50,642 nt of DNA from Teichococcus aerophilus (GTDB lineage Bacteria; Pseudomonadota; Alphaproteobacteria; Acetobacterales; Acetobacteraceae), in NCBI RefSeq assembly GCF_014490485.1, contig NZ_JACTVA010000033.1, forward strand, positions 10,226-60,867. Direction: 5' to 3'. The translations under genes and the position numbers were made by a program. This document shows, in pieces, positions 2,859 to 38,949 of the stretch; position 1 is the stretch's first letter, and each line of letters starts with the position of its first letter. Under the pieces are notes generated by a model. The model saw only the letters and a program-made list of their open reading frames with translations, did no database searches and was not told the DNA's origin.

Positions 2859-2907
2859 AAAGGCCGGAGAAGGAATTCCCCGGGCCCTTCTTTTTTCTTC
2901 GGGCTTT
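2859..2907 (+). repeat. unpaired forward arm of the terminator-repeat family
   Basis: A GGCCGGAGAA / TTCCCCGGGCC hairpin with loop GGAA is followed by CTTCTTTTTTC. It matches the forward arms at 9467, 13983, 16221, 22128 and 38742. It lies just after the mutS stop in the orientation that would end mutS transcription. One A-C mismatch breaks the stem. No reverse arm follows before glnD; the rest of the 366-base gap (2908-3198) shows nothing I recognise. Confidence 0.75.
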
Positions 2908-3198
2908 GGGTTGGCGCCGGCGCTTGGAGGGGTGGCGCTGGCGAGGTCTGCGCAGGCTTCGCAGGTGGCGATGCGCTACCTATGACCGGAAGCGTGACGG
3001 CAGGCACGGCGCGACCGCACAGGGCCCACTTTGCGTCCAGGCGATAGCTGGCCGCGACATCGTGTATCCCAGGCATGGCAGCCCCGGCGCCGGTTCCGGC
3101 CCCGAAAGGTTGCGAAACTGCCACTGCACCGCGATATCCTCTCGTTTATGGCGTCGAGGGTGCTGTTGCCGCGGCGCGGCACGGGATAACATCGACGG

Positions 3199-5991
3199 AT
3201 GATCCACAGCGGCGACATGCCTGACGCCCTTGTTTCCTCTCTGACCGGCGCACGGCCCATGCGTCCCTTGCCCGACCTGGCGCAGGATCTCATTCCGCGC
3301 CCGGGCGAGCCGGTACCGCGCGACATCGCGCTGGCGCTGCTGCGGCGGCAGCTTGGCCGCATCCAGTCCCGCGTCCAGGAAGCGTTCGAGGCGCATGCCC
3401 TCTCCGGCCTCACCGCCGCGCGCGCGCTGGCGGAGCTGACGGACGGGCTGATCCACGCCATCCATGCCTACACGCTGGCCCAGGTGGCACCGGACGGCAG
3501 CGGGGAACGCGCCTTCACGGCGGCCGAGCCGCCCTTCGTTCTGGCCGCCACCGGCGGCTACGGGCGCGGCGTGCTCGGCCCGTTCTCGGATATCGACCTG
3601 CTGTTCCTCTCCGACTCCCCGCTCGGGCCGCGCGGCCGGCGGGCGGTGGAGTTCATGCTGTATTTGCTGTGGGACCTGGGGCTGAAGGTGGGGCATGCCA
3701 CCCGCAGCATCCGCGAGTGTCTGGTGGATGCGCGGGCCGACGCCACCATCCAGACCGCGCTGCTGGACAGCCGCTTCATCGCCGGTGAGCGCGCGGTGTT
3801 CGACCGCTTCGACGCCGCCTTCAGCCTGGCGCGCCAGGAATGGGGCGTCGGCCAGTTTCTCACCTCCAAGCGGGCGGAGCGCACGGCGCGCCACAAGCGC
3901 TACGGCGACAGCCCCTATCTGGTGGAGCCGCACATCAAGGAAGGCCGCGGCGGCCTGCGGGACATCCAGACCATGTACTGGCTGGCCCGCTACGCCTTCG
4001 GCGTGCAGCGGATGCCGGAACTGGTGGGGGAGGACAGCCCCGGCGGCGGCCTGCTGACCGCGCGCGAAGCCCGTGCCATCCGCCGCGCCTGGGACTTCCT
4101 GTGGACGGTGCGCTTCCACCTCCACTACGTCACCGGCCGGGCGGAGGAGCGCCTGACCTTCGACCTGCAGCCGGTGGTGGGTGCCCGCATGGGCTACACC
4201 CGCCACGGCAAGCAGGACGGGGTGGAGCGCTTCATGAAGCACCTGTTCCTGACGGCGCGGGACGTGGTCCGCCTCTCCCGCCTGCTGGAACCGGCGATCG
4301 AGCGCGCGGCGCTGGGCTCCCCCGCCGTGACCAAGGCGCAGGACCCGGCGCTGGCCACCATCGGCATCGCCATGGCGGACGGCAAGTTGCTGTTCGCGCC
4401 GGACAAGGACATCGCCGCCGACCCGGCAGTGATGCTGCGCCTGCTGCGCGCGGCGCGGGACCGGGGGCTGGAACTGCACCCGCTGGCGCAGCGCGCGCTG
4501 ATCCGCAGCGCCCCCCGCGCCCAGTCGCTGCGGGACGACCCCGCCGCCGCCGCCCTGTTCCTGGACCTGCTGACCGGCAAGGAATCCCACCGCTGGGTGC
4601 GGGTGCTGAACGAGGTCGGCTTCCTCTCCCGCTACATTCCGGACTGGGCCCGCATCGTCGGCCTCATGCAGTTCGACACCTACCACGTGTTCACGGTGGA
4701 GGAGCACACGATCGAGGCGATCGGCGTGCTCAACCAGCTGGAGCAGCAGGAGCTGGAAGAGGCTGTGCCGGTGGCCAGCGAGCTGGTCGGCCAGCTGCAA
4801 TCCCGCCGCGCCCTGTATGTGGCGACGCTGCTGCACGACATCGCCAAGGGCCGTGGCGGCGACCATTCGGAACTGGGCGCCGAGCTGGCGCATGAGATCT
4901 GCCCCCGCCTGGGCCTGAGCCAGGAGGAGACCGAGACCGTCTCCTGGCTGGTGCTGAACCACCTGCTGGTCAGCCAGACCGCTTTCAAGCGCGACATCGA
5001 CGACCCCAAGACCATCCTGGACATCGCCGAGGTCGTGCAATCGCCCGAGCGGCTGCGCCTGCTGCTGGTGTTGACCGTGGCGGATATGCGCGCCGTCGGC
5101 CCCAAGGTGTGGAATGGCTGGAAGGCCACGCTGCTGCGGGAGCTGTACTGGCGCGTGGCGGAAGTGCTGGCCGGTGGCCTTTCGGTGCCCGAGCGCGACG
5201 TGCGCGTGGCCCGCGCCAAGCAGGCCGCCGCCGCCATGATGGAGGAACTACCCAAGGAGGCGGTGGAGAACTTCCTGGCCTTGGGCTACCCCGGCTACTG
5301 GCTCTCCTTCGACCCCGAGACCCATGCCCGCCATGCCGGGCTGATCCGGGAGGCCGAGGCCACCGGCGCGCCGCTGACCGTTTCCACCCGCGTGCTGGAA
5401 GCGCGGGCGGTGACAGAGGTCACCGTCTATGTCACCGACCACCCAGGCCTGTTCAGCCGCATCGCCGGCGCGCTGGCAGTGGCGGGGGCCAGCATCGTCG
5501 ATGCGCGCATCCACACCATGACCAACGGCCGGGCGCTGGACACCTTCTGGGTGCAGGACGCCCAGGGCGGCGCGTTCGACAGCCCGCACAAGCTGGCCCG
5601 CCTCTCCGTGCTGATCGAGCAGGCGCTGTCCGGCCGGCTCAACCTGGAGCAGGAAATCCGCAAGGTGCGGCGGGAGCCGGCGCGGCTGCGCGCGGTGCAG
5701 GTGCCGGGCCGCGTGGTGATCGACAACCACGCCAGCAACACCCACACCGTCATCGAGATGAACGGCCGGGACCGCCCGGGCCTGCTGCACGACATGACCG
5801 CCGCGATCAGCGAGCAGGGGCTGCAGATCGCCTCCGCCCACATCACCACCTATGGCGTGCGGGCGGTGGACGTCTTCTACGTGAAGGACGTGTTCGGGCT
5901 GAAGGTGGAGAACGAGCGCAAGCTGACCAGCCTGCGCGCCGCCCTGCTCTCCGCCCTGACGCCGGCGAACGGGGAAGCGGGCGCGGCCTGA
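3199..5991 (+). CDS. glnD: bifunctional [protein-PII] uridylyltransferase / uridylyl-removing enzyme GlnD
   Basis: GlnD senses glutamine and adds or removes UMP on PII proteins (GlnB/GlnK), controlling nitrogen assimilation. The order of domains is complete: nucleotidyltransferase motif GGYGRGVLGPFSDIDLLFL at about 119-137, an HD hydrolase motif LLHDIAKGRGGDHSELG near 544-560, and two C-terminal ACT domains starting near 738 (YVTDHPGLFSRIAGAL) and 849 (MNGRDRPGLLHDMTAAI). At 930 residues it is slightly longer than the E. coli protein. The first Met is uncertain: 3217 and 3259 are in-frame alternatives and no strong ribosome site favours one. The mutS-glnD neighbourhood is common in alphaproteobacteria. 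Confidence 0.96.
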   Translation: MIHSGDMPDALVSSLTGARPMRPLPDLAQDLIPRPGEPVPRDIALALLRRQLGRIQSRVQEAFEAHALSGLTAARALAELTDGLIHAIHAYTLAQVAPDGSGERAFTAAEPPFVLAATGGYGRGVLGPFSDIDLLFLSDSPLGPRGRRAVEFMLYLLWDLGLKVGHATRSIRECLVDARADATIQTALLDSRFIAGERAVFDRFDAAFSLARQEWGVGQFLTSKRAERTARHKRYGDSPYLVEPHIKEGRGGLRDIQTMYWLARYAFGVQRMPELVGEDSPGGGLLTAREARAIRRAWDFLWTVRFHLHYVTGRAEERLTFDLQPVVGARMGYTRHGKQDGVERFMKHLFLTARDVVRLSRLLEPAIERAALGSPAVTKAQDPALATIGIAMADGKLLFAPDKDIAADPAVMLRLLRAARDRGLELHPLAQRALIRSAPRAQSLRDDPAAAALFLDLLTGKESHRWVRVLNEVGFLSRYIPDWARIVGLMQFDTYHVFTVEEHTIEAIGVLNQLEQQELEEAVPVASELVGQLQSRRALYVATLLHDIAKGRGGDHSELGAELAHEICPRLGLSQEETETVSWLVLNHLLVSQTAFKRDIDDPKTILDIAEVVQSPERLRLLLVLTVADMRAVGPKVWNGWKATLLRELYWRVAEVLAGGLSVPERDVRVARAKQAAAAMMEELPKEAVENFLALGYPGYWLSFDPETHARHAGLIREAEATGAPLTVSTRVLEARAVTEVTVYVTDHPGLFSRIAGALAVAGASIVDARIHTMTNGRALDTFWVQDAQGGAFDSPHKLARLSVLIEQALSGRLNLEQEIRKVRREPARLRAVQVPGRVVIDNHASNTHTVIEMNGRDRPGLLHDMTAAISEQGLQIASAHITTYGVRAVDVFYVKDVFGLKVENERKLTSLRAALLSALTPANGEAGAA

Positions 5992-6124
5992 GGCGCGGAA
6001 GCCCGGGCAGCATTCCTTGGCCCCCGGCGCCAGCCGGGCGCCAAAGCCTGGAGTAGGCTGGTCCCCGGCGCAGCATTGCCCATCCGGGGCGGTGCGGACG
6101 TGATCTGAGCAGGAGACAGGCGGC

Positions 6125-6658: not shown

Positions 6659-6706
6659 CTCGCAAAAAGCTGGGGTTCGGGGAATTCCTTCCCCGGCGTT
6701 CCTCTC
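6659..6706 (-). repeat. unpaired reverse arm of the terminator-repeat family
   Basis: Read on the minus strand this is CGCCGGGGAA, loop GGAA, TTCCCCG, then a short interrupted T-rich tail (AGCTTTTTG). It is a reverse copy with no forward partner in the 105 bases back to the GFA stop. The flanking genes are both on the plus strand, so unlike most copies it does not terminate an obvious gene. The rest of 6554-6921 shows no coding sequence I can support. Confidence 0.65.
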
Positions 6707-8238: not shown

Positions 8239-9446
8239 GCAGCCACCTCCCCCGCATCGGCAGGCGCGGCCTGCTGTTGGGCCTTACCGCGATGGCCGCC
8301 ACGGCCAATGCGCGCCTGGCCTTCGCCGAGACCCCCCTGGTGCCCACCGCCACCGACAATCGATTGGTCGTGGTCATCCTGCGCGGCGCCATGGACGGCA
8401 TGGCCGCCCTGGCCCCCTACGGGGACGCGCGCTACCGCGAGCTGCGCGGCCCGATCGCCCTGGCGGAGCCGGGGCAGGAAGGCGGGCTGCTGGATTGCGG
8501 CGGCTTCTTCGGCCTGAACCCGCGGCTGGAGAACTTCCATCGCTTCTTCACCGAGGGCAGCCTACTGCCCATTCACGCCATCGCCGGCCCCTACCGCAAC
8601 CGCAGCCACTTCGAGGCGCAGGACATGCTGGAGAGCGGGGCGCCGCAGCGCCTGACCTCCGGCTGGCTGAACCGCGCCCTGCAAGGCCTGCCGGATGCAC
8701 CGGCGGACCAGCCGGAGACCGGGCTGGTGGTCGGGCTGGACCTGCCGCTGCTGATGCGCGGGCCGCATTCCGTCGGCATGTGGGCACCGCCGCGCCCGGT
8801 GCGGCCACCGCCGGACCTGTATGCCCGCATGGCCGACGTGCTGCATGCCGACCCGCTGCTCGGCCCGGCGGTAGAGGAGGGGCTGCGCGGCCGCGGCTAC
8901 GCCACCAGCGTACTGAGCGGGGAGCCGCCGCCGCGTGGTGGCTTCGTCGCCCTGGCGGCTTCGGCCGGCAAGCTGCTGGCGGCGCCGCATGGCCCGCGGG
9001 TCGCCGCTATGGAGATCGGCGGCTGGGACACCCATGCGGACCAGGCACGGCGGCTGGACCCGGTGCTGGTGCAACTGGACCAGGGGCTGGCGGCCATGCG
9101 CGGCCAACTGGGCGACGTGTGGTCCCGCACCGCCATCCTGGTCATGACCGAATTCGGCCGCACCGCCCGCGCCAACGGCAATAACGGCACCGACCACGGC
9201 ACCGGCGGCGCGGCCTTCCTGTTGGGCGGCGCCGTGCAAGGCGGCCGCGTGCTGGCCGACTGGCCCGGGCTGGCCGAGGGCCAGTTGTTCGAGAAACGCG
9301 ACCTGCAGCCGACGCGGGACCTGCGCGCCATCGCCAAGGGATTGCTACGCGACCACCTGCGGCTGCCGGAAAGCACCATTGCGGCGGCCTTCCCAGGCGC
9401 GGGCGATGTCGGCGCGGAGGGTGGGCTGGTGCGGGGGATGGCCTGA
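8235..9446 (+). CDS. Tat-exported DUF1501 family protein
   Basis: The 403-residue product starts with a twin-arginine signal (GRRGLLLGL at 9-17, likely cleavage after LAFA at 31), so it should be exported folded to the periplasm. The mature part has the DUF1501 signatures VVVILRGAMDGM, a NRSHFEAQDMLESG block, and near the C-terminus ILVMTEFGRTARANG with NGTDHGTGGAAFLLGG. DUF1501 belongs to the alkaline-phosphatase-like/sulfatase superfamily by fold, but its reaction is unknown. It overlaps the DUF1800 gene by four bases. A terminator-like repeat arm begins 20 bases after the stop. Confidence 0.9.
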   Translation: MSSHLPRIGRRGLLLGLTAMAATANARLAFAETPLVPTATDNRLVVVILRGAMDGMAALAPYGDARYRELRGPIALAEPGQEGGLLDCGGFFGLNPRLENFHRFFTEGSLLPIHAIAGPYRNRSHFEAQDMLESGAPQRLTSGWLNRALQGLPDAPADQPETGLVVGLDLPLLMRGPHSVGMWAPPRPVRPPPDLYARMADVLHADPLLGPAVEEGLRGRGYATSVLSGEPPPRGGFVALAASAGKLLAAPHGPRVAAMEIGGWDTHADQARRLDPVLVQLDQGLAAMRGQLGDVWSRTAILVMTEFGRTARANGNNGTDHGTGGAAFLLGGAVQGGRVLADWPGLAEGQLFEKRDLQPTRDLRAIAKGLLRDHLRLPESTIAAAFPGAGDVGAEGGLVRGMA

Positions 9447-9466
9447 GCGCGCCCTTCTCCAGTGTG

Positions 9467-9822
9467 GGGAAGGCTGGGGGAAGGAATTCCCCCAGACCCC
9501 CATCTTCTTTTTTGCGAGTTTGAGGGCGGGGCAGTGGCGGGTCTTCCCAGGTCGGGAAACGGGTAGGCCGCGCGAGAGACTGTTATCGTCCCCCGGTAAC
9601 CATGAGCTCGCTTCGGTTGTCACAGCAACACGCCACGGAAAGCCTGCAAGTCAGCCCCCTAACGGCTGGTTCATAACTACCTCCGAGGCGGCCCCCGGCT
9701 GCTCACGGTTCAGCCCACGCGACCTTTAAAAACATCATGAGCGCCTACCCTCAGTCCCGCAGCCATCCAAACTTGCAGAAATAAAGAAGGGGTCTGGGGA
9801 ATTCCTTCCCCAACCTTCCTTC
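9467..9822. repeat. paired terminator repeat element, copy A
   Basis: The forward arm at about 9467-9521 (stem CTGGGGGAA, loop GGAA, stem TTCCCCCAG, then CATCTTCTTTTTT) and reverse arm at about 9772-9822 face each other. The reverse arm reads TTGGGGAA, loop GGAA, TTCCCCAG on the minus strand, followed by ACCCCTTCTTTA. The right part of the core (about 9710-9765) shares GGTTCAGCCCACGCG, TTTAAAAACATCAT and CCCTCAGTCC with the cores of copies C, D and E. At about 356 bp it is the longest copy. The gap 9447-9916 holds nothing else I recognise. Confidence 0.8.
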
Positions 9823-9916
9823 CCCTTCCCTCAGCGAGAGGGTGGACTTTCCCGCGCCAGGGCGTTGCTCTGGCGCAGGGCGGATCATCCAGCCGCCGCC
9901 AGGGACAGGGACGACC

Positions 9917-10807
9917 ATGAGCGATCGGCACACCATCGGCACCGCTGCGATCTCCGCCACCATCAAGCCGGAGGGCGCCGAGCTGACCAGCCTGCGCGAT
10001 TCGGCCGGGGAGGAGTTGTTGTGGCAGGCCGGGCCGGAATGGCCGCGGCACTCCCCGGTGCTGTTCCCCGTGGTCGGCCGGCTGGCGGGGGATACGCTGC
10101 GCCACCAAGGCCAGGAGTACCGGGTGACGCAGCATGGCTTCGCGCGGGACAGCCTGTTCGCCTGGACCGAGCGCAGCGCCACCCGCGCCGTGCTGCGCTT
10201 GGTGGACAGTGCGGAGACGCGGGCGGTGTATCCCTTCCCCTTCCTGCTGGAGATGATCTACGCGGTCGAGGGTGAGACGCTCTCCGTCGCCGCGCGGGTG
10301 ACCAATCCGGGCGATGCGGTGCTGCCCTGCGGCGTCGGCGCGCATCCGGCCTTCCGCTGGCCGCTGGCCGCCGGCGTGGCGAAGGAGGCGCATGTGCTGG
10401 AATTCGACACGCAGGAGACCGGCCCGGTGCTGGCGGTGGAAGGCGGCCTGCTGGGTGAGGAAGAGAAGCTTCCGTTCGACGGCCGCGTGCTGCCGCTCTC
10501 CCCGGCGCTGTTCGCCCAGGATGCGCTGGTGATGCCGGGTGTCGCCAGCCGCTCCGTCCGCTTCGTGGCGGCGGGAGAGGACGGGGTGCCGGCACGGGTG
10601 CTGACCGTGGCGTGGGAAGGGTACAAGGACCTGGGCATCTGGTCCAAGCCGGGCGGCGCGCCGTTCCTGTGCATCGAGCCCTGGTTCAGCATGGCCAGCC
10701 CGGTGGGCTGGGATGGCGAGATTGCCGACAAGCCCGGCATCCTGCTGCTGCCGCCGGGCGAGAGCCGGGACTTCACCTGGACCGTGCGGAGCAGCGACGG
10801 CGGGTAG
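9917..10807 (+). CDS. aldose 1-epimerase family protein
   Basis: The 296-residue product resembles the aldose 1-epimerase/LacX group, which fold as a beta-sandwich of the galactose mutarotase type. Recognisable blocks are ISATIKPEGAELTSLRD, SPVLFPVVGRL, QHGFARDSLF (catalytic His region, about residues 74-83), GVGAHPAFRWPL (second His) and FLCIEPW (catalytic Glu, near 252). It probably interconverts sugar anomers, but members often act on sugar phosphates or have unknown substrates. The start at 9917 follows AGGGACAGGGACG; an upstream in-frame Met at 9842 lies in non-conserved sequence. It stands alone. Confidence 0.85.
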   Translation: MSDRHTIGTAAISATIKPEGAELTSLRDSAGEELLWQAGPEWPRHSPVLFPVVGRLAGDTLRHQGQEYRVTQHGFARDSLFAWTERSATRAVLRLVDSAETRAVYPFPFLLEMIYAVEGETLSVAARVTNPGDAVLPCGVGAHPAFRWPLAAGVAKEAHVLEFDTQETGPVLAVEGGLLGEEEKLPFDGRVLPLSPALFAQDALVMPGVASRSVRFVAAGEDGVPARVLTVAWEGYKDLGIWSKPGGAPFLCIEPWFSMASPVGWDGEIADKPGILLLPPGESRDFTWTVRSSDGG

Positions 10808-10974
10808 GGCGTGAACGCCTGAGGGTGGGACACCGGAAGGCCTGGAGCGTGATGTGTCGGCAGATCGCGCGTCAGGCTGGCTGGTGGGCGATAGGCCGCC
10901 CCGATACGGTCGTGGCGCAGAGCGGGAAGGAAAGTCAGGGGAAAGAATTCCCCTGTGTAAACGTGGGCCTGTCT

Positions 10975-11421
10975 TCAAACTAGCCAGAGGTAGGCGGCTG
11001 CGGCGTGGACACCGGCGAGGAAGTGGATGGCCCGCTTGTCGTAGCGGGTGGCGATAGCGCGGAACTGCTTGAGCTTGCAGAAAAAGTTTTCAACGAGGTG
11101 GCGGGCCGCATACAGGTCACGGTCGAAAGGCTGCGGCCGCTTGCGGTGGCGTTTTGGCGGGATGGCTGCGGTTTTGCCGGCCGCCCGGAGCCGGTCGATC
11201 ACGCGCTGGTCAGTATCATAGGCGCGATCGGCCAGCAGCGTCGGCGCCACGATGCGCGGCAGCAGCACGTCGCTGCCGCAGAGGTCATGCGCCTGGCCTG
11301 GCGTCAGGTGAAAGCTCAGCGGATTGCCCAGCGCATCGACCAGGGCATGGATCTTCGTGCTCAGCCCGCCTCGGGCAGGGCCAATGGCTTCTTCGGCACG
11401 GTTTTTTAGCCGCCCCCGCAC
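10975..11421 (-). CDS. IS5 family transposase, C-terminal frame (orfB)
   Basis: The frame continues the transposase from the slippery A tract: EEAIGPARGGLSTKIHALVD, then the second catalytic Asp in LLADRAYDTD and the catalytic Glu in ARHLVENFFCKLKQFRAIA, with the usual end AAAYLWLV. All three DDE residues are therefore present across the two frames. The stop codon lies inside the terminal inverted repeat. The GTG at 11421 is only the first possible start; expression is expected through frameshifting from orfA, as described for many IS5 relatives. Confidence 0.88.
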   Translation of the reverse strand: MRGRLKNRAEEAIGPARGGLSTKIHALVDALGNPLSFHLTPGQAHDLCGSDVLLPRIVAPTLLADRAYDTDQRVIDRLRAAGKTAAIPPKRHRKRPQPFDRDLYAARHLVENFFCKLKQFRAIATRYDKRAIHFLAGVHAAAAYLWLV

Positions 11422-11767
11422 TGTGCTGGTGCGCCCGGACCAGGGTCGCGTCGATCATCGCGTATTCATTGTCCGCATCCACCGCCAGGGCCTGAAGCAG
11501 ACGCTCCCAGACACCACGTCGCGCCCAGCGGCTGAAGCGCGTATGCACCACTTTCCAGGGGCCATAGCGCTCCGGCAGGTCGCGCCAGGGAATGCCGGCC
11601 CGATACCGGAACAGGACCGCCTCCACAAAGCGCCGGTTGTCCTGGGCCGGACGACCCACGCCGCCGGCACGGCCGGGGAGAAGATCCTTGATCCGCTCCC
11701 ATTGATCATCCCGCAAACCATAGCGCCCGCATGACACAGGTCTCCGACCCTTCCACCGGAGACCCAT
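11285..11767 (-). CDS. IS5 family transposase, N-terminal frame (orfA)
   Basis: This 160-residue frame carries the N-terminal IS427-type sequence RYGLRDDQWERIKDLLPG, a helix-turn-helix-like region ending in YRAGIPWRDLPERYGPW, and the first catalytic Asp in YAMIDATLVRAHQHSAG. After HQHSAGAAKK the reading leaves the family consensus and ends in unrelated residues. The real product joins orfB at an A6 run (plus-strand T tract at 11402-11407). Joining needs a +1 (or -2) shift, giving a fused protein of about 264 residues. The ATG at 11767 or a GTG at 11740 could start it. Confidence 0.88.
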   Translation of the reverse strand: MGLRWKGRRPVSCGRYGLRDDQWERIKDLLPGRAGGVGRPAQDNRRFVEAVLFRYRAGIPWRDLPERYGPWKVVHTRFSRWARRGVWERLLQALAVDADNEYAMIDATLVRAHQHSAGAAKKPCRRSHWPCPRRAEHEDPCPGRCAGQSAELSPDARPGA

Positions 11768-12048
11768 GAATCACCCATGACCCCAAAAGAAAATCCGCAA
11801 TTTGAGGACAGGCCCGTATACGTTTACGCCATCTTTCTTCTGTCAGTTGGCGTGGGGCTTCGGAACCGGCAGTTGCGGCCGTGAGACAGATCACGGGCCA
11901 CCTAGCCAGGCCATCAGCCTCCTGCGTCATCCCGCCCTTGGCCTCCAAAGGCCAACGCCGCATCGGCCACCCCCGAAAGACTCGCAGAAGAAAGATGGGG
12001 TCCGGGGAATTCCTTCCCCGGCCTTCCAAGCCTGAATGCCATCGGGCT

Positions 12049-13176
12049 CTAACAGAAATGCGCTCCGCGCGTTTCCACCGGCAGCACGTAGAGCGACTGG
12101 CTGGCGCACATGTAGAGCTGGTTCCGCCGCGTGCCGCCGAAGCAGAGATTGGCGCAGATCTCCGGCAGCTTGATCAGGCCGATGCGCTGGCCATCCAGCC
12201 CGAAGATGTGCACGCCGTCATAGCCATCCCCCACCCAGCCGGCGCCGACCCACACATTGCCGGCTTCGTCGCAGCGGATGCCGTCCCCCATGCCGGTCTT
12301 GCCGTCCATCTCCATGCTGCAGAAGGTGCGGGGGTTGCTGAGGCGGGCGCCGTCCACGTCGAAGGCCCAGACGATGCTCTTGGCCTCCGGGTAGTGGGAC
12401 ATGCCGGTATCGGCGACGTAGAGGGTGCGGTAGTCCGGGCTGAAGCACAGGCCGTTCGGCTTGAAGGGCTGGTCCGCGACCTTCTCCACCGCGCCGCTGC
12501 CGGGATCGATGCGATAGACCGCTTCCTTGATCAATGGGCGGGGCGAGTCGGTGGATTGCGGCAGGCGGTTGCCCTCGTAGTCCATCAGCCCGCCATAGCC
12601 GGGGTCGGTGAACCAGATGGCGCCGTCATTCGGGTGCACCACCACGTCGTTGGGGGCGTTAAAGGGGCCGTCCGGGCCGCGCGCCGCCAGGATGGTCAGC
12701 TTGCCGTCCGGCTCGTAGCGGACGACGTCCCGGTGATAGTGCCGGCAGGCGATCTGCCGCCCTTCCCGGTCGAAAGTATTGCCGTTGGAATAGCCGGCTG
12801 GGCTGCGGAAGCGGCGGGAGACGTGGTTGTCCTCCTCCATCAGCCGCAGGCATTCGTCGTTCGGGATGTCGGACCAGATCAGGAAGCGGCCGGTGGCGTG
12901 CCAGGCGGGGCCTTCCGCCCAGCCCAGGCCGGTATGCAGGCGGCGGATGCGGCTGTTGCCCAGCTTGGCCGAGAAGCGCTTCGGGTCCAGCGCCACCACG
13001 TCCGGGTCGGGGTAGCGCATCGGCGGCGCGTCCGGCCCATAGTCACGCTGGGCGCGGATGGCCTGGTCACGCACGGCCTGGGCGCTGGCGGTGCGCAGCA
13101 CGGCCGGCATGGAAAGGGCGGCGAAGGCGGAGGCGCCCAGCACGGTGCGGCGCCTGGACGCGAGAACGTGGTACAT
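12049..13176 (-). CDS. Tat-exported SMP-30/gluconolactonase/LRE family protein
   Basis: The 375-residue product begins with a twin-arginine signal (SRRRTVLGASAFAAL, about 7-21; cleavage near residue 32), so it is likely periplasmic. The rest is a six-bladed beta-propeller of the SMP-30 type with its metal-ligand motifs: AEGPAWH, SNGNTFDREGR, FNAPNDVVVHPNDGAIWFTD and PNGLCFSPDYRTLYVADTG. Family members hydrolyse sugar lactones such as gluconolactone. The Met at 13176 follows AGGGAAGAAACGCC and directly precedes the signal; upstream residues are not signal-like. It is a single-gene unit ending at a terminator-type repeat arm. Confidence 0.9.
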   Translation of the reverse strand: MYHVLASRRRTVLGASAFAALSMPAVLRTASAQAVRDQAIRAQRDYGPDAPPMRYPDPDVVALDPKRFSAKLGNSRIRRLHTGLGWAEGPAWHATGRFLIWSDIPNDECLRLMEEDNHVSRRFRSPAGYSNGNTFDREGRQIACRHYHRDVVRYEPDGKLTILAARGPDGPFNAPNDVVVHPNDGAIWFTDPGYGGLMDYEGNRLPQSTDSPRPLIKEAVYRIDPGSGAVEKVADQPFKPNGLCFSPDYRTLYVADTGMSHYPEAKSIVWAFDVDGARLSNPRTFCSMEMDGKTGMGDGIRCDEAGNVWVGAGWVGDGYDGVHIFGLDGQRIGLIKLPEICANLCFGGTRRNQLYMCASQSLYVLPVETRGAHFC

Positions 13177-13293
13177 GGCGTTTCTTCCCTGTTGCCGCGG
13201 CGTCCTTGGCGCGCCGCGTGCGGGCGCCAGCTTGGCACAGGTTGAAGCCGCCTGCCGCACACGCCTCGCGGCGCGCAGGCCAGTCAGACCAGA

Positions 13294-13815
13294 TCAGGCC
13301 GGGGGCACGGTCTTGTCGCCGGCGCCCAGCGCGCGCTGCATGTAGACCACGTCCAGCCAACGGCCGAACTTCAGCCCGGCCGCCTTCAGCACGCCCACCT
13401 GCTTGAAGCCCAGGGAGAGGTGGAGGCCGATGGAGCCCACATTCTCCGAGTCGCCGATCACGGCGAACATCTGGCGGAAGCCGGCGGCCTCGGCCCGCTT
13501 CAACAGGGCCTCCACCAACGCCTTGCCGACGCCCTGGCCGCGCACGTCATCCCGCACATAGATGGAATCCTCGGCGGCGAAGCGGTAGGCGGAACGGTCC
13601 CGCAGGGCGGCGTAGTAGCCGTAGCCCTTCACCTCCCCCGCATCCTCGGCCACCAGCCAGGCCCAGCCATGCGCCTGGTTGCGGGCCAGGCGGGCACCCA
13701 GCTCGGCCTCGTCCGGGGGCAGTTCCTCGAAGGTACCGGTGCCGTTCAGGACGTGATGCGCATAGATGGCGGCCATGGCGGGCAGGTCGGCCTGGGTGGC
13801 ATCACGATAGATCAT
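13294..13815 (-). CDS. GNAT family N-acetyltransferase, phosphinothricin acetyltransferase-like
   Basis: The 173-residue product has the layout of the Pat/Bar/YncA group: IYRDATQADLPAMAAIYAHH at the start, FEELPP, RSAYRFAAEDSIYV, the acetyl-CoA loop VRGQGVGKALV (about 93-103) and the closing GLKFGRWLDVVYMQRAL. Enzymes of this group acetylate methionine analogues, methionine sulfoximine or amino acids; herbicide resistance is not implied by the sequence. The start at 13815 follows GGAGACTCCGG. The gene lies 117 bases downstream of the SMP-30 start and is transcribed towards it. Confidence 0.9.
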   Translation of the reverse strand: MIYRDATQADLPAMAAIYAHHVLNGTGTFEELPPDEAELGARLARNQAHGWAWLVAEDAGEVKGYGYYAALRDRSAYRFAAEDSIYVRDDVRGQGVGKALVEALLKRAEAAGFRQMFAVIGDSENVGSIGLHLSLGFKQVGVLKAAGLKFGRWLDVVYMQRALGAGDKTVPPA

Positions 13816-13982
13816 CCGGAGTCTCCAACACTCACGCCATGGGCGCCGGTGCCGGAACAGCCGGACGGCGCAGGCCCGCACAGAGAGGGCCTGAACCATG
13901 GGTAAGGTCGGTTCCGGGCGACGGCAAGAGCCCGGGTCTCGCTCAGCGCCTCCGGTGGGGGCGGTGAGCGCTGCTGAACAGA

Positions 13983-14238
13983 GGAAGGCTGGGGAAAGAA
14001 TTCCCCAGACCCCTTCTTTTCCTTTTTCGGGTTTTGCAGGTGTGGCGGTTGAGAGAGCTGTCTGGTTGGAGTGACGGCTCGTTCGCGCCGGAGGTCCTAG
14101 ACCTCCGGCGAATGAGGGTTCAGCCCGCGTCCCCTATTAGACATATCATCGGGGCACCCGCTCTCAGCCCTGAAGCGCCGCGTCGAACTTGTAGAGAAAA
14201 GAAGGGGTCTGGGGAATTCATTCCCCAGCCTTGCTTCC
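13983..14238. repeat. paired terminator repeat element, copy C
   Basis: The forward arm is at about 13983-14037 (stem CTGGGGAA, loop AGAA, TTCCCCAG, then ACCCCTTCTTTTCC). The reverse arm is at about 14189-14238 (minus strand: CTGGGGAA, loop TGAA, TTCCCCAG, ACCCCTTCTTTTC). The core has a palindrome with 10-bp arms GCCGGAGGTC/GACCTCCGGC at 14087-14109, then GGTTCAGCCCGCGT and CTCTCAGCCCTGAAGCGC. The reverse arm is placed to terminate the phytase-like gene, whose stop is 64 bases away. The rest of the 487-base gap 13816-14302 shows no gene. Confidence 0.88.
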
Positions 14239-14302
14239 TCCAATCTCTCTCACAGGCAGCAAAAACCAAGCGCAGCCGACCTTGTCGGCCGATGCGAGCC
14301 GC

Positions 14303-15676
14303 TCAGCGGGCGCGCAGCAGTTCCGGCACGTGCAGCAGGATCAGTTCGTTGTCGTCGGCGCGGGTCAGGTGGCGGCCGGCGCTGAAGGGCAGGTTGTTGT
14401 CGTTGCCGACGATGATGTGATCGGCGTCGACCATCGCCACATTCTCGATGGTGAAGAACGGGAAGGACAGGCGGTTGGCGGGGGCGTTCGGCCCGCGGTC
14501 CCCACGCGTGCGGGCCAGGTTCTCGGGGTCCTGGATGTCCATCAGGTCGATATAGCCGATCTTGCGGACGAAGCCCTCGGCATCCGGCGCACCCAGATCC
14601 ACCAGGGAGACGCGCTTGATACGCGCGGGGGCATGGAAGCAGGCGGGCGGCTGCTGGCCCTGGGCGCAGGCCAGGGACGGGTCGCCTTCCGCGTTGTCGC
14701 GCTCGATCACCAGGGCGCGGCGGTCGTCGATCATGTTGAAGTCGCCGATGGCGGCGGCGCCCTCGGCCAGGCGGTATTTCAGGCTGCGGCCGGTCCAGGC
14801 ACCGCGGGCGGTGTCGAATTCCATCATGCGGATGAAATTGCCCTCGGGGCGGTCGGTGCCCTCGATGAAGAGCGGCTGCTCCAGCAGCGCCCACAGGCGG
14901 CTGCCATCGGGCGACATCGCCATGCCCTCATACCCGCCGGAGCGGCGGGCGCGGAAGTTAGCGCCGGCGACGGGCGTGGCGCCGATGGAGAGCGCGGGGT
15001 TGTCCGGGCTCATCAGCGGCTTGCCGTCCAGCAGGGTCTGGTGGACCTGCTGCACCCGGCCCTGCGCATCCAGGCGGAGGATGAAGGGGCCGAACTCCTC
15101 GCCGATCCAGAAGCCACCGCCCTCGATCGGCTGGATGCTCTCCGGGTCGAAATCCGCACCGGTCAGGTAGCGGGCGTCGGTGCCCTCGTAGGCGATGCGG
15201 AAGGGCACGCGGCGGTCGGGGTCGGAGAAGAAGACGGTCTGCAGCACCGTCACCTGGCCGGTGCGGAAATCCGGGCGGATCTTGCGCAGCGCCAGCAGGG
15301 CGTCGCCGCTGTTGCGGCGGTTGCCGAAGCCGTTGTCGGTCAGCACCCAATAGGCGCCGGCCTCCCCCGCCACCGGCTTGATGCCGGAGAAGCCCTGCAC
15401 CGGCTGGCCGATGAAGGGCAGCGACAGGCCGGTGGGGCGGCCAGTCGGCGCCGGGCCGGTGGTGCCGGGCACGCTGCCAGGACGCTCGTTCCGCGCATCG
15501 CCGGTGAACTTGCCGGAGACGAGGGCATCGCGCGGCGCATCGGCCGGCGGCAGCTCCATGGTGAAGGCGGGCAGAATGGCGTGGCCGGCCAGGCGGGCGT
15601 CGAAGCGCTGCTCCTGAGCCATGGCGGCGGTGGCGGTCGCGATCAGGGCCGTGGCGGCCAGCAGGATCCTGCGCAT
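14303..15676 (-). CDS. exported esterase-like activity of phytase family protein
   Basis: The 457-residue product has a Sec signal peptide (MRRILLAATALIATATAAMA, cleavage near 20). The mature part fits the phytase-like beta-propeller family (esterase-like activity of phytase): GFSGIKPV and YWVLTDNGFG near 105, FDPESIQPIEGGGFWIGEEF near 176, YEGMAMSPDGSRLWALLEQP near 252, and late ENVAMVDADHIIVGNDNNLP. It probably acts on phosphate esters or related substrates in the periplasm, but the family reaction is poorly defined. The ATG at 15676 fits the signal peptide. It is alone in its unit and ends at the reverse arm of repeat copy C. Confidence 0.88.
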   Translation of the reverse strand: MRRILLAATALIATATAAMAQEQRFDARLAGHAILPAFTMELPPADAPRDALVSGKFTGDARNERPGSVPGTTGPAPTGRPTGLSLPFIGQPVQGFSGIKPVAGEAGAYWVLTDNGFGNRRNSGDALLALRKIRPDFRTGQVTVLQTVFFSDPDRRVPFRIAYEGTDARYLTGADFDPESIQPIEGGGFWIGEEFGPFILRLDAQGRVQQVHQTLLDGKPLMSPDNPALSIGATPVAGANFRARRSGGYEGMAMSPDGSRLWALLEQPLFIEGTDRPEGNFIRMMEFDTARGAWTGRSLKYRLAEGAAAIGDFNMIDDRRALVIERDNAEGDPSLACAQGQQPPACFHAPARIKRVSLVDLGAPDAEGFVRKIGYIDLMDIQDPENLARTRGDRGPNAPANRLSFPFFTIENVAMVDADHIIVGNDNNLPFSAGRHLTRADDNELILLHVPELLRAR

Positions 15677-15816
15677 GTGGTCTGTATCCCGGTTACGTCA
15701 GCGTGGCGCTGTTACCGGGTGCGTGTTGCAGCGCCTTGACGCCGGCATGACGAAACGGCGACACGGGCGGAAGGCCCCTGCCCCCCGCCCGCGTCCGCGA
15801 CAGGCCGTAACGGCGA

Positions 15817-16083
15817 TCAGCGATAGACGATCACCGGCTCACCACCACTGTTGCCGACAATCACCGGCACGCCGGCACTGAGATTGCCAACCGCCGGGCC
15901 GTGGTAGCGGATGACCGGGCTGCCATCCTGGCTGCCGACCACCGTGGCGATGCCCTGGCTGACCGCCTGGCTGTGCGGCTGCTGCGCCATCAGCGCATCG
16001 ATATTGGCATCGCCATTGGCGGCAAAAGCGGCACCGGAGAAACCGGCCACCAGGATCGCGGAAAGCAGGACCTTGCTGAACAT
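15817..16083 (-). CDS. small exported protein with an internal repeat, function unknown
   Basis: I do not recognise this 88-residue protein. It has a clear Sec signal peptide (residues 1-21, ending AAFA) and a short mature chain of about 67 residues without cysteines. The mature part holds two similar copies of a 13-residue unit, VVGSQDGSPVIRY at 48-60 and IVGNSGGEPVIVY at 75-87. The start follows an AAAGGAATTC ribosome site at good spacing, and codon use is like that of its neighbours, so it is likely real. It is separated by 140 bases from the phytase-like gene. Confidence 0.75.
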   Translation of the reverse strand: MFSKVLLSAILVAGFSGAAFAANGDANIDALMAQQPHSQAVSQGIATVVGSQDGSPVIRYHGPAVGNLSAGVPVIVGNSGGEPVIVYR

Positions 16084-16220
16084 GACTAAAGAATTCCTTT
16101 CAACTAGGCTGCGGCTGCGTGCCGCTCCGTTGGGATTCTTCTACGCCCGGCAGCCTGGGCTGGGCCAATCGGCTTTGACCATGCCGGGTATCGGTGGTGG
16201 TGATGCAACGATGGGCAGAT

Positions 16221-16468
16221 CGGTGGGGAAGGAATTCCCCGGGCCCCTTCTTTTTTTCTGCGCGTTTGGCAAAACACTTCAGGACTGAGAGCGGACGCGT
16301 CTTGATGATTTTAATAATGGGCCACGCGGGCTGAACCCTCAGTCGCCGGAGGTCCAGGACCTCCGGCGGACCCAGCCGTATCCCAAGAACACCCTCTCAA
16401 AAGCCGCGCCCGAAAAATCGAAAAAAGAAAAGAAGGGGCCCGGGGAATTCTTTCCCCGGCCTTCCTCT
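16221..16468. repeat. paired terminator repeat element, copy D (core flipped)
   Basis: The forward arm is at about 16221-16268 (GGGGAA, loop GGAA, TTCCCCGGGCC, then CCTTCTTTTTTTC). The reverse arm is at about 16412-16468 (minus strand: GGCCGGGGAA, loop AGAA, TTCCCCGGGCC, CCTTCTTTTCTTTTTT). The core palindrome (GCCGGAGGTC/GACCTCCGGC) is at 16345-16367. The CTCAGTCCTGAAG block lies next to the forward arm here, so the core is inverted relative to copies A, C and E. The reverse arm ends 14 bases from the emrB stop. The gap 16084-16482 holds no other feature except the leader of the small exported gene. Confidence 0.9.
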
Positions 16469-16482
16469 CCATCCCACCCCGA

Positions 16483-18093: not shown

Positions 18094-18106
18094 GGCGCGT
18101 GTGCCT

Positions 18107-19270: not shown

Positions 19271-19284
19271 TCGGAAGGGCCTTC

Positions 19285-19303
19285 GAACTGAACGGTTCAG
19301 TTC
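19285..19303. promoter_or_regulatory. TetR operator O1, perfect palindrome
   Basis: GAACTGAACGGTTCAGTTC has two 8-bp arms around a CGG centre. It lies 14 bases upstream of the emrA start codon. It shares the ACTGAAC/GTTCAGT half-sites with the second site at 19347. Binding here would block the emrAB leader, so the divergent TetR regulator is the obvious candidate. Confidence 0.8.
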
Positions 19304-19339
19304 ATTTGCAGGCGTTGAGTTGCGTCCCTCGTGTCTTTT

Positions 19340-19366
19340 TGTCAAGACTGAACCAAACCGTTCAGT
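19340..19366. promoter_or_regulatory. TetR operator O2 overlapping a probable emrA -35 box
   Basis: ACTGAAC (19347-19353) and GTTCAGT (19360-19366) form an inverted repeat with a six-base spacer, the same half-sites as O1. Next to it the minus strand reads TTGACA at 19345-19340, a consensus -35 hexamer for emrAB, although the matching -10 (AACTCA-like near 19320) is weak. The site is 42 bases from the TetR start, so one repressor could control both directions. Confidence 0.7.
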
Positions 19367-19407
19367 TCACTCTTGAAGCCGCGACAGGGCTCTATTACTA
19401 ACCTTTC

Positions 19408-20058: not shown

Positions 20059-20159
20059 ACCGGCGCTTTGACGCGAGAGGCCACCCGTGCCCCCGCTAGC
20101 CTTAAGGTAACTTTCCGGCTCCGCAGGGGTGGCATGCGGAAAAATAGCGGGTCCGACTC

Positions 20160-21541: not shown

Positions 21542-21565
21542 CGCTCCCCCTTCCGGGCGCGGCAG

Positions 21566-21597
21566 GGCGGAGAGGGAAACCTCTCCGCCTTTTTTTG
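21566..21597 (+). terminator. intrinsic terminator after the decarboxylase gene
   Basis: GGCGGAGAGG, loop GAAA, CCTCTCCGCC forms a perfect 10-bp stem with a GNRA loop, followed by seven T. It is 24 bases after the stop codon and unrelated in sequence to the dispersed repeat hairpins. Confidence 0.95.
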
Positions 21598-21632
21598 TTT
21601 CAAGCCCGCCATGTGCCGGATACTGTCCCGCC

Positions 21633-22097: not shown

Positions 22098-22127
22098 CAG
22101 CTGCCTTGGCGTTTTTCTGGGCGGGAA

Positions 22128-22375
22128 AAGGCCGGGGAAGGAATTCCCCGGGCCCCTTCTTTTTTTCGAGTTTAAGGGCGGGGCTTTCGGGCGGGTGCGC
22201 TTGAGACACGGCTGGGTGTGCCGGAGGTCCTGGACCTCCGGCGACTGACGGTGCAGCCCGCGTGGCCCATTTTAAATATCATCAAGCAGCGCCCGCTCTC
22301 AGTCCTGAAGCGCTTCGCCAAACTCGCAGAAAAAAAGAAGGGGTCCGGGGAATTCTTTCCCCGGCCTTCCCTTCC
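22128..22375. repeat. paired terminator repeat element, copy E
   Basis: The forward arm is at about 22128-22173 (GGCCGGGGAA, loop GGAA, TTCCCCGGGCC, CCTTCTTTTTTTC). The reverse arm is at about 22322-22375 (minus strand: GGCCGGGGAA, loop AGAA, TTCCCCGGA, CCCCTTCTTTTTTTC). The core palindrome GCCGGAGGTC/GACCTCCGGC is at 22220-22242, followed by GGTGCAGCCCGCGTGGCCC, AAATATCATCAAG and CTCTCAGTCCTGAAGCGC. Here the flanking genes converge, so each arm is oriented to stop one of them: the Lrp gene from the left and the solute-binding gene from the right. It fills most of the gap 22098-22474. Confidence 0.92.
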
Positions 22376-22474
22376 CCAAAAATTCCAGAAACCGGAACAA
22401 CGCTGGCAGCTACTGACGGGATTGCCTTTCCAGGAGAAGGCAGTCGCCTCCTCCTGGAAGGCCGTGCGTCGTGC

Positions 22475-24070: not shown

Positions 24071-24176
24071 AGGCGTTTCCCCTTAAGATTCTTCATGAAA
24101 CCCCGTTCATCTAGCGATTCAAGGGGTGCGCTGCTACAGTCTCATGGCAAGAAGGCGGCAGCCTCTGGGGGATGAG

Positions 24177-25778
24177 ATGAAACAAACTTTGCAGGCGGCC
24201 TTGTTGGCCGCCGTTTCGGCGTTCGGCCTGACCGCCTTCGTGCCTGCCCAGGCGCAGAACGTGCAGAGCGTGACGATCGCCGTCGGCGCGCAGGTCACCT
24301 CACTGGATCCGCACTACCACGCGCTGTCGCCCAACTACGCCGTGGCCGAGATGCTGTTCGGCGCGCTGGCCGGCTTCGATGCCCATGGCCGCATCCAGCC
24401 CGGCCTGGCCGAGAGCTGGCGCCCGGTGAGCGAGAGCGTATGGGAATTCAAGCTGCGGCCGAATGTGCGCTTCCACAACGGCAACGCCTTCACCGCCGAG
24501 GACGTGGCCTTCACCGTCGCCCGGGTGCCGACGGTGCCGAACAGCCCGTCCTCCTACGCCCTCTACACCCGCGCCATCAAAAGCGTGGAAGTCGTCGACC
24601 CGATGACGGTCCGCTTCCACACCGAAGGCCCCTACCCCAACCTGCCCAACGACCTCGCCCAGGTCTCCATGCTCGACAGGGAGACGCATGACGGCGCGGC
24701 GACGGAGGACTTCAACTCCGGCAAGGTCGCCATCGGCGCCGGCCCGTACCGCTTCGTCTCCTTCCGCTCCGGCGACCGCCTGGAGCTGGCGCGGAACGAG
24801 GAATACTGGGGCCCCAAGCCGGCCTTCGAGCGCGTCTCCTACCGCATCATGACCAACAATGCCGCGCGCATGGCCGCCGTGCTGAGCGGCGACGTGGACA
24901 TGATCGACCAGGTGCCGACCACCGACATCGCCCGGCTGCGGCGCGAGGAGCGGGTCCGCCTGTCCGAAGCCGACGGCCTGCGCGTCATCTTCCTGGGGCT
25001 GGACAATTCGCACCCGGAAGGCTCGCCCTTCATCACCGACAATGACGGCAAGCCGCTGACGGTCAATCCGCTGCACGACGTGCGGGTCCGGCGCGCGCTG
25101 AACATGTCGATCGACCGCAACGCGATCGTCGAGCGGGTGATGGAAGGCAGCGCGATCCCCACCGCGCAATTCCTGCCCCCTGGCACCTTCGGCTACGTGC
25201 CGGGCCTGGAGCCGGTGCGGCCGGACCTGAACGCGGCACGGAAGTTGCTTGCCGATGCGGGGTACCCCAACGGTTTCCGCATGACCCTGCACGGCCCGAA
25301 CGACCGCTACATCAATGACGCCCGCATCATCCAGGCCGTCGGCCAGATGTGGACGCGCATCGGCGTGCGCACCGCCGTCGAGGGCCAGCCCTGGACCACC
25401 TTCGTCGCCCGCGCCGGGCGGCAGGAGTTCAGTGCGTTCCTGGCCGGCTGGGGCACCGCCTCGGGCGAGGCTTCCTCTCCGCTTCGCTCGCTGACCGCCA
25501 CTTACACGCGGGATCGCGGCTGGGGTGGTTCCAACCGCGGGCGCTACAGCAACCCCGCCGCCGACGCCAAGCTGGAGGCCGCCCTGCGTGAGCTGGACGA
25601 TGCCAAGCGCGAGGTCCTGCTGCAGGAAGCCACCCGTATCACCATGGAAGACGTGGGCATCATGCCGATCCATATTCAGAAGAACGTCTGGGCCTTGCGC
25701 CCTGGCCTGGCGCACGAAGCCCGGGCCGATGAACTGACCCGCGCGCAGGACGTGCGCCCAGCCCCGGCGGCCCGCTGA
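24177..25778 (+). CDS. ABC transporter substrate-binding protein, family 5, first gene of a Dpp/Opp-type operon
   Basis: The 533-residue protein has a signal peptide (MKQTLQAALLAAVSAFGLTAFVPAQA without the first residue; cleavage near 25). It is clearly paralogous to the minus-strand protein next to it: AQVTSLDPHYHALSPNYAVA, GLAESWRPVSESVWEFKLR, VRFHNGNAFTAEDVAFTVAR and GAGPYRFVSFRSGDRLEL line up block by block. It should deliver peptides, opines or similar compounds to the permeases that follow. The Met at 24177 precedes the signal; the upstream Met at 24126 does not fit. Its stop is four bases before the first permease gene. Confidence 0.94.
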   Translation: MKQTLQAALLAAVSAFGLTAFVPAQAQNVQSVTIAVGAQVTSLDPHYHALSPNYAVAEMLFGALAGFDAHGRIQPGLAESWRPVSESVWEFKLRPNVRFHNGNAFTAEDVAFTVARVPTVPNSPSSYALYTRAIKSVEVVDPMTVRFHTEGPYPNLPNDLAQVSMLDRETHDGAATEDFNSGKVAIGAGPYRFVSFRSGDRLELARNEEYWGPKPAFERVSYRIMTNNAARMAAVLSGDVDMIDQVPTTDIARLRREERVRLSEADGLRVIFLGLDNSHPEGSPFITDNDGKPLTVNPLHDVRVRRALNMSIDRNAIVERVMEGSAIPTAQFLPPGTFGYVPGLEPVRPDLNAARKLLADAGYPNGFRMTLHGPNDRYINDARIIQAVGQMWTRIGVRTAVEGQPWTTFVARAGRQEFSAFLAGWGTASGEASSPLRSLTATYTRDRGWGGSNRGRYSNPAADAKLEAALRELDDAKREVLLQEATRITMEDVGIMPIHIQKNVWALRPGLAHEARADELTRAQDVRPAPAAR

Positions 25779-34523: not shown

Positions 34524-34533
34524 GCCGCAGGCG

Positions 34534-37700: not shown

Positions 37701-37727
37701 ATTGGGTGCCTCCTGCGACCGTGTGCC

Positions 37728-38120: not shown

Positions 38121-38121
38121 A

Positions 38122-38499: not shown

Positions 38500-38650
38500 G
38501 TACCTGCTCCCGAAGCCCTTGGGGCTTCTGTTCGTCTGCCTGACACCGAATGCGCCAGGCGAGGTGATCGTCTACACCCCGCTTAGAATGACGCGCGGAA
38601 TGCAAACAGCCTCACGGCGCGGAGAGTACCCCGCGACCGCAAGAGGCGGC

Positions 38651-38679
38651 GGTGTAGGCCCCGTACCGCCGAGAGTCAA
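38651..38679 (-). promoter_or_regulatory. probable promoter of the rpsM-rpsK-rpoA-rplQ operon
   Basis: On the minus strand TTGACT (38679-38674), 17 bases, then TACACC (38656-38651) fits a sigma-70 type promoter. It lies about 150 bases upstream of rpsM, between the repeat element and the gene. It gives the alpha operon a start separate from the spc operon. Confidence 0.65.
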
Positions 38680-38741
38680 GAAGACGTTTGAAAAAGTGCT
38701 TCGCCTGGCAGGGCGATGGGCCGCCGCACCGGGCGGTGCCG

Positions 38742-38949
38742 TGAGGCCGGGGAAGCAATTACCCGGACCCCTTCTTCTTTTCTGGAAGCTTGGCGGTGCC
38801 ATTCAAGGCAGGCACGGCGGCGCTTCGACAGGCCATTTAAAGACTGAGGCGCCTCGGCACGACGAGCGAGGCATCACCGCGCCAAACACCCGAATGCTGC
38901 AGAAAAAAGATGGGGGCCTGGGGGAATTCTTTCCCCCAGCCTTCCCTTC
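38742..38949. repeat. paired terminator repeat element, copy F, at the end of adk
   Basis: The forward arm is at about 38742-38795 (CCGGGGAA, loop GCAA, TTACCCGG with one mismatch, then ACCCCTTCTTCTTTTC). The reverse arm is at about 38898-38949 (minus strand: CTGGGGGAA, loop AGAA, TTCCCCCAG, then CCCCCATCTTTTTTC). The outer tail of the reverse arm touches the adk stop codon (38948-38950), so it acts as the probable terminator of the spc operon. At about 208 bp this is the shortest pair. The gap 38500-38947 otherwise holds only the alpha-operon promoter. Confidence 0.85.

What the first reader, a model, noticed from the sequence alone, without database searches (positions are those of the whole stretch)
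2859..38949. Dispersed family of inverted terminator pairs: a possible MITE-like element that supplies transcription terminators
Fourteen copies of a 40-50 bp hairpin centred on GAATTC and followed by a CTTCTTTT-type tract occur in the window. Twelve form six inward-facing pairs (9467/9772, 10931/11982, 13983/14189, 16221/16412, 22128/22322, 38742/38898) around a core, mostly giving about 210-260 bp (one is 356). Two are single (2859, 6659). All lie at operon boundaries and none is inside an operon. In most cases an arm lies within about 0-120 bases after a stop codon, pointing the right way to terminate that gene. I know REP/BIME and some MITE families with terminator-like ends, but I do not know this one.
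Basis: partly seen in the sequence, partly recalled or inferred. Interest (0 to 1): 0.82.

Follow-up and report, generated by a model that had tools for sequence, protein, structure and literature searches.

The report
Mobile paired hairpins resembling transcription terminators
A bacterium related to Roseomonas carries hundreds of small repeated DNA elements that seem to have copied themselves around its genome and that carry a transcription stop signal at each end, so a jumping element may be supplying many of its genes' off-switches.

Summary
In detail: 14 hairpin copies in the window (0.16 expected), six inward pairs, two singles; one pair is split by an IS. The genome (Acetobacteraceae, near Pseudoroseomonas) has 845 arms at up to 2 mismatches (reversed control 0). 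In two samples of it 112 of 150 arms pair inward around a core, giving elements of about 245 or 305 bp; none lies in a called gene, and convergent gaps are preferred. Mobility is supported: 0-845 arms within the genus, 15 of 16 compared filled sites empty in at least one relative, nesting. No target duplication, no Y1/RAYT transposase (16 of 17 genomes), no autonomous partner was found. Arms resemble intrinsic terminators (compensatory stem changes, T tract); at convergent gene ends they outnumber other recognisable terminators 24 to 9 in a 400-kb sample. Termination in the cell is unproven; solitary arms in tandem gaps show no bias to the useful orientation. Relatives carry elements with nearly the same core but other arms without a T tract, so terminator arms look like a swapped-in module. 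Best reading: a MITE-like family carrying bidirectional terminators, a new variant of a known kind (closest: pneumococcal SPRITE).

The parts
2860..2896 (+). solitary arm after mutS (gene 151-2832, +)
   Evidence: fold; no GAATTC arm at the mutS-glnD site in the 13 relatives with both flanks found, of 15 tried
6664..6700 (-). solitary arm, faces no gene end
   Evidence: gene calls
9470..9515 (+). left arm of element 1, just after the DUF1501 gene
9783..9818 (-). right arm of element 1 (element about 9470-9818)
10930..10955 (+). left arm of element 2 (TCAGGGG type), cut by the IS
10965..11815 (-). IS (DDE_Tnp_1 ORF 10975-11421, IS5-like by recall) inserted in the left arm of element 2; not part of the family
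   Evidence: Pfam; sequence; ends read by eye
11988..12025 (-). right arm of element 2
13982..14021 (+). left arm of element 3
14086..14110 (.). core palindrome of element 3
   Evidence: family D10
14196..14235 (-). right arm of element 3, faces the end of gene 14303-15676
16221..16257 (+). left arm of element 4
16344..16368 (.). core palindrome of element 4
   Evidence: family D10
16425..16464 (-). right arm of element 4, faces the end of the MFS gene 16483-18093
22128..22167 (+). left arm of element 5, convergent gap, about 30 bases after the AsnC-type gene
22219..22243 (.). core palindrome of element 5
22329..22370 (-). right arm of element 5 (element 22128-22369)
38743..38779 (+). left arm of element 6 (two mismatches, weak hairpin)
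38903..38946 (-). right arm of element 6, after adk; no arm at this site in 10 genus loci

Best explanation
These are copies of a non-autonomous mobile element family (MITE-like). Type A is about 245 bp and bounded by AAGGCC...GGCCTT; type B is about 305 bp with an extra outer inverted repeat. Both carry, as inverted subterminal arms, a hairpin followed by a T tract pointing into the element. Inserted downstream of a gene, the arm met first should fold in the nascent RNA and stop RNA polymerase, and because the arms face each other this works from either side. Copies spread in bursts in some lineages of the genus, presumably by a transposase acting in trans, and survive where they do least harm: just after stop codons, above all between convergent genes. 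Shown: repeat anatomy, inward pairing, intergenic placement, filled/empty sites, nesting, stem kept by compensatory change, near-identical core in T-tract-less elements of relatives. Inferred: transposition in trans, recognition of hairpins rather than tips, termination in the cell, and that host genes now rely on the arms.
For: Copies and pairing: (first sample 437 kb: 116 arms, 43 inward pairs, 0 outward; second sample 400 kb: 34 arms, 13 inward, 0 outward). Placement: 0 of 116 and 0 of 34 arms in called genes; second sample, gaps with an arm: 14 of 55 convergent, 4 of 230 tandem, 0 of 44 divergent, Fisher 5e-9. Mobility: 0-845 arms among 17 genus genomes; 15 of 16 compared C97 filled sites empty in at least one relative, median gap 613 against 163 bp over 32 comparisons; two clear nested cases. 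Terminator features: stem-base pair (-1,16) formed in 262 of 284 unique arms against 123 on average when shuffled, four pair types; median hairpin -17.3 kcal/mol; 5 or more T of 10 in 266 of 284. Second sample: right-facing arm at 24 of 110 convergent 3' ends, another intrinsic terminator at 9 of 110.
Against: No target duplication in 70 pairs. No autonomous partner or candidate transposase found. Nearest-neighbour identity 69-94% in the 58 of 60 full-length copies that had a neighbour, so no fresh jump was caught. 4 of 16 compared sites have an arm in a relative. Solitary arms in tandem gaps, useful against useless orientation: 8 to 10 in G000, 1 to 6 in G007, 0 to 1 in G002. In G007 the convergent preference is not significant (p 0.49), and G007 (of 27) and G002 (of 11) each have one arm in a called gene and G007 one outward pair; a G006 stretch has another outward pair. 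Window arms fold with z from +0.4 to -3.4, several no better than shuffles, and the strict scan did not call them in their terminating direction. Placement after stop codons could come from purifying selection alone.
Confidence: 0.66

Rival explanations
1. A purely parasitic MITE: the hairpin and pyrimidine tract serve transposition only, and copies are found after stop codons because insertions elsewhere were purged. Any termination is a side effect.
For: No orientation bias of solitary arms in tandem gaps, modest z-scores. Croucher et al. read the convergent enrichment of BOX, RUP, SPRITE and IS elements as a sign of mobile, parasitic entities in tolerant places (PMC3049150, passages).
Against: The T tract is conserved in 266 of 284 arms, and T-tract-less relatives with nearly the same core also occur in several copies, so a T tract seems not to be needed for spread.
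Confidence: 0.22
2. Ordinary vertically inherited intrinsic terminators that look alike because of convergence or gene conversion.
For: In G009 most arms are solitary (13 of 15 loci viewed lack a GAATTC partner), and several neighbouring arms have the same spacing in G009 and G014. 4 of 16 sites share an arm with a relative.
Against: Conserved non-terminator core, sharp boundaries, nesting, empty sites, 0 arms in G008 and 845 in G000.
Confidence: 0.07
3. REP/REPIN elements moved by a RAYT (Y1 transposase).
For: Inverted pairs of palindromes, extragenic, high copy number.
Against: Y1_Tnp absent from 16 of 17 genus genomes including G000; the one hit (G005) covers profile positions 86-121 only. 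The arm foot reads AAGGCC, not GTAG or CGTC (tags as in PMC3733652, abstract and passages).
Confidence: 0.03
4. DNA uptake sequences in inverted dyads, as in Neisseria (recalled).
For: Short conserved palindrome that resembles a terminator.
Against: 0 of 150 arms in called genes in the two G000 samples, and the core is conserved too.
Confidence: 0.02

Closest known systems
SPRITE of Streptococcus pneumoniae (Croucher et al. 2011, PMC3049150; abstract and passages seen)
   Same: interspersed terminator-like hairpin, enriched between convergent genes and near 3' ends, suggested co-option, TSD not established, no IS with similar ends
   Different: SPRITE: 30 copies, single hairpin, AT-rich, no comparable empty site. 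Here: 845 arms, mostly back-to-back pairs around a core, empty sites and nesting seen, modular arms, GC-rich Alphaproteobacterium
REP/BIME/REPIN (GTAG and CGTC palindromic repeats, PMC3733652; start of abstract and passages seen)
   Same: extragenic palindromes, singles and inverted dimers, some with conserved spacers
   Different: no RAYT, no GTAG or CGTC tag, T tract, longer spacer
MITEs in general (review PMC10969869; start of abstract and passages seen)
   Same: short, non-coding, inverted ends, many copies, variable sites
   Different: no TSD found, no parental IS found; the review calls terminator formation by MITEs 'conceivable', pointing to SPRITE

Membership tests
MITE | short multicopy element with inverted ends and defined boundary | tested here: met
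MITE | presence/absence at orthologous sites | tested here: met
MITE | target site duplication | tested here: not met
   70 pairs: direct repeats of 4 bp or more outside the boundary at most 1 of 70 at any offset up to 12; only equal offsets on both sides were tried, and the true ends of type A are not exactly known
MITE | autonomous IS sharing the ends | tested here: inconclusive
   none seen among arm-flanked genes in 437 kb of G000 (few of them typed) nor at 30 places with the type-B end; most of the genome was not examined for it
REP/REPIN | RAYT (Y1) transposase in the genome | tested here: not met
   16 of 17 without; one partial hit
REP/REPIN | GTAG or CGTC tag at the foot of the palindrome | tested here: not met
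intrinsic terminator | stable stem kept by compensatory change | tested here: met
   (one pair strongly, one weakly, inner pairs hardly vary and are fixed by the search pattern); single-copy z-scores modest
intrinsic terminator | T tract directly after the stem | tested here: inconclusive
   my scanner, which allows 0-4 bases, of 116 arms; the tool's 0-2 base rule called none in the terminating direction in 9000-23000
intrinsic terminator | transcript 3' ends at the arm | not testable with these tools
   no RNA data
SPRITE | AAAA/TTTT ends, AT-rich | tested here: not met
   arm profile held against the description in PMC3049150; no sequence alignment was made
Rfam RNA family | match above the gathering score | tested here: not met
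   0 matches in the window

The most novel reading that the evidence does not exclude
A self-spreading terminator: a mobile family has swapped T-tract hairpin arms onto an older mobile core and, in one lineage, become the main source of intrinsic terminators at convergent gene ends, moved by an enzyme that recognises subterminal hairpins rather than conserved tips and leaves no target duplication. Terminators would then turn over by transposition, not by point mutation.
Probability: 0.3. Interest if true: 0.82.

Novelty: new variant of a known kind. Interest (0 to 1): 0.62.

Why it matters
If the arms terminate, this is transposition rewiring transcription-unit boundaries on a genome scale, in a bacterial group where intrinsic terminators recognisable by my scanner are otherwise rare (1 of 50, 2 of 50 and 5 of 50 convergent ends in stretches of G001, G008 and G006). 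It makes the origin of terminators testable: nearly the same core carries terminator arms in one species and plain hairpins in others, and empty sites give natural before/after pairs. Some insertions also separate genes that overlap or adjoin in relatives.

Tried and rejected
IS between 10931 and 11982 as the autonomous partner: rejected, it is inserted inside the left arm. RAYT: rejected. Genes flanked by inward arms in 437 kb as autonomous copies: 24 candidate spans, many overlapping; those in the window have ordinary Pfam domains or the IS, one of the others was typed (SBP_bac_5), the rest were not. Places with the type-B end as partners: 30 places; eight nearby proteins typed, six with ordinary Pfam domains and two without a match, none a transposase. 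Split-palindrome target (flanks complementary): not significant, 49 of 500 shuffles reach the value at 20 nt and 40 of 500 at 50 nt. Phages and viral contigs: no match. Plasmids: partial matches in P. cervicalis only. An exact insertion junction could not be defined: the nearest relative is about 87% identical in genes and spacers do not align. G009/G014, the closest pair on a one-gene tree, were listed for exact junctions but not followed further. The adk-locus scan of genome contigs showed no arms in 80 loci, which says little because it is the ribosomal-protein region.

Literature: eight searches of the held PMC library listed no paper that I recognised from title or start of abstract as describing this family; only three papers were opened beyond listings in passages on it (PMC10969869, PMC3733652, PMC3049150) plus PMC12306157, and subscription papers are not held.
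Full report
WHAT IS THERE. The hairpin motif occurs at 14 places in the window, against 0.16 expected. The arm reads roughly AAGGCC-GGGGAA-K-GAATTCCCC-GGACCCC-TTCTTTTTTT; conservation runs from about -6 to +35, with a purine bias out to about -15 and nothing shared by all copies beyond that (174 unique G000 arms). Six pairs face inward. The pair 10931/11982 is interrupted by an IS of about 850 bp with a DDE transposase ORF, inserted into its left arm. By my gene of 14 arms point so as to terminate the gene before them. Rfam has nothing here at gathering scores.

GENOME SCALE. The window lies in G000 (C68:10226-60867, 5.66 Mb in 140 contigs). G000 has 845 arms at up to 2 mismatches and 0 for the reversed pattern. 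In the first sample (C97, C13, C35 and window, 437 kb, rich in copies) there are 116 arms at up to 3 mismatches, 86 of them in 43 inward pairs, and 0 outward pairs. In a second sample of 20 stretches taken by position (400 kb) there are 34 arms, 26 of them in 13 inward pairs, 0 outward. None of the 150 arms lies in a called gene. Relatives are less clean: in the fetched stretches 18 of 27 G007 arms, 6 of 11 G002 arms and 8 of 20 G006 arms are in inward pairs, G007 and one G006 stretch have one outward pair each, and G007 and G002 have one arm each in a called gene. In G009, 13 of 15 loci viewed are solitary.

TWO TYPES. Type A is about 245 bp; of 60 unique full-length copies compared, the 58 with a neighbour have a nearest-neighbour identity of 69-94%. 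Type B has a further outer inverted repeat (GATCGACATTCGG and neighbours; 14 + 16 matches in G000, reversed control 0), one arm with a TCAGGGG stem and one with GCCGGGG; six distinct two-ended copies measure 286-312 bp between the matched ends. In two clear cases (L243, and L248 = C97:26414-26908) a type-B element lies inside a type-A element, in L248 within its core palindrome. L237, L242, L253 and L262 look like partial nests, judged by eye.

MOBILITY. Within the genus (17 genomes) arms number 0 (G008) to 845, and differ widely between neighbours on a one-gene tree. Of 299 family genomes searched 30 have any arm (8 of the 299 are of this genus, 7 of them with arms); outside it the highest counts are genus g52 (61, 90, 7), then 13, 11 and 9 in three others; the reversed control rang once in all 299. 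For C97 I matched flanking genes in G001, G002, G006 and G007: of 16 G000-filled sites that could be compared, 15 are empty in at least one relative and 4 have an arm in at least one; in 32 filled/empty comparisons the gap is 613 bp in G000 and 163 bp in the relative (medians), while 142 both-empty comparisons give 6 and 9 bp; in two comparisons the relative has an arm and G000 none. Examples: 613 against 18-21 bp in three relatives, 344 bp against overlapping genes in G001. In the window, no arm lies at the adk-rpsM site in 10 genus loci and the spacer is 185-260 bp against about 450 bp here; of 7 aligned, 5 show an unrelated hairpin-plus-T sequence there, by eye. The mutS-glnD arm is absent from the 13 relatives with both flanks found, of 15 tried. 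No direct repeats flank 70 pairs beyond chance, at equal offsets.

A SWAPPED MODULE. In G013 the mutS-glnD gap holds an element with nearly the same core (48 bases at 90%, E 5e-10 in a small search) but arms GGGGTGACAGTGTCACCCC and outer GGGGGCGCCGCCCCC hairpins without a T tract. Such arms prevail in the G002 stretch (7 cores with both arms of this kind, 1 with both AATT arms), whereas the G000 samples have 26 cores with both AATT arms; the same loose core search also returns many matches with no arm at all, 95 in G000, mostly chance. G008 has neither kind of hairpin in 200 kb. So T-tract arms look like a derived or exchanged part of an older paired-hairpin family; the direction of change is inferred.

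TERMINATORS? Stem-base pair (-1,16) forms in 262 of 284 unique arms, shuffled mean 123, with C-G, G-C, T-A and A-T all common; the next pair 254 against 230, one of its sides being restricted by my search pattern. Inner pairs hardly vary and are fixed by the pattern. Shuffling does not allow for relatedness. The median hairpin energy is -17.3 kcal/mol against -6.2 for mononucleotide shuffles, but dinucleotide shuffles of the 14 window arms give z from +0.4 to -3.4. My scanner of 116 arms; the tool's stricter scan of 9000-23000 found 12 sites (7.8 expected) and of the arms only the reverse side of the 10936-10955 stem, I think because the stem has a bulge and C residues before the T tract. At convergent 3' ends a right-facing arm lies within 300 bases in 24 of 110 cases in the second sample (49 of 88 in the rich one), another intrinsic terminator in 9 of 110 (16 of 88). 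Oriented arms lie a median 39.5 bases after the stop codon in the first sample. Against selection for use: solitary arms in tandem gaps show no bias to the useful orientation (8 to 10 in G000, 1 to 6 in G007, 0 to 1 in G002), and the convergent preference is not significant in G007 (p 0.49) though it is in G002 (p 0.009).

COMPARISON. SPRITE in pneumococcus is the closest described repeat that I found: terminator-like, convergent-enriched, suggested co-option, but 30 copies, single hairpins and no empty site (PMC3049150, abstract and passages). The 2024 MITE review calls terminator formation 'conceivable' and points to SPRITE (PMC10969869, passages). REP/REPIN membership fails on the RAYT and tag tests.

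VERDICT. A real, large repeat family, very probably mobile, with terminator-like paired arms; how it moves is unknown, and termination in the cell is likely but unproven.

Noticed in passing
window 10965-11815: IS inserted in what looks like a 22-bp palindrome (GCGTAAACGTATACGTTTACGC-like) inside the arm; the same palindrome without an IS sits at the same place in other type-B copies (L242, L262, C97 site 53).
   Followed up: partly
L263, L264, L273-L275, L281, L282 (G000 contigs C1, C53, C75, C86): Arm density is very uneven: 1 arm in these 140 kb, but 66 in the 160 kb of C97; these contigs may be other replicons or protected regions. Likewise 0 arms in 200 kb of G006 contigs C49 and C144.
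   Followed up: no
L305 and stretches of G001, G002, G006: Sister family of paired hairpins with outer GGGGGCGCCGCCCCC caps, often starting right after stop codons, without T tracts.
   Followed up: partly
C97 sites 53 and 68: Another repeat, CATCAGGTGGAATCACCTGATG-like with AGAGCAT stretches, near two elements.
   Followed up: no
window 22475-25778: Two divergent family-5 solute-binding protein genes, related to each other (inverted repeats of 71-78%); in G006 the match to this region lacks the first gene and the element.
   Followed up: no
genus g52 (G067, G153, G205): Another genus of the family with 61, 90 and 7 arms.
   Followed up: no
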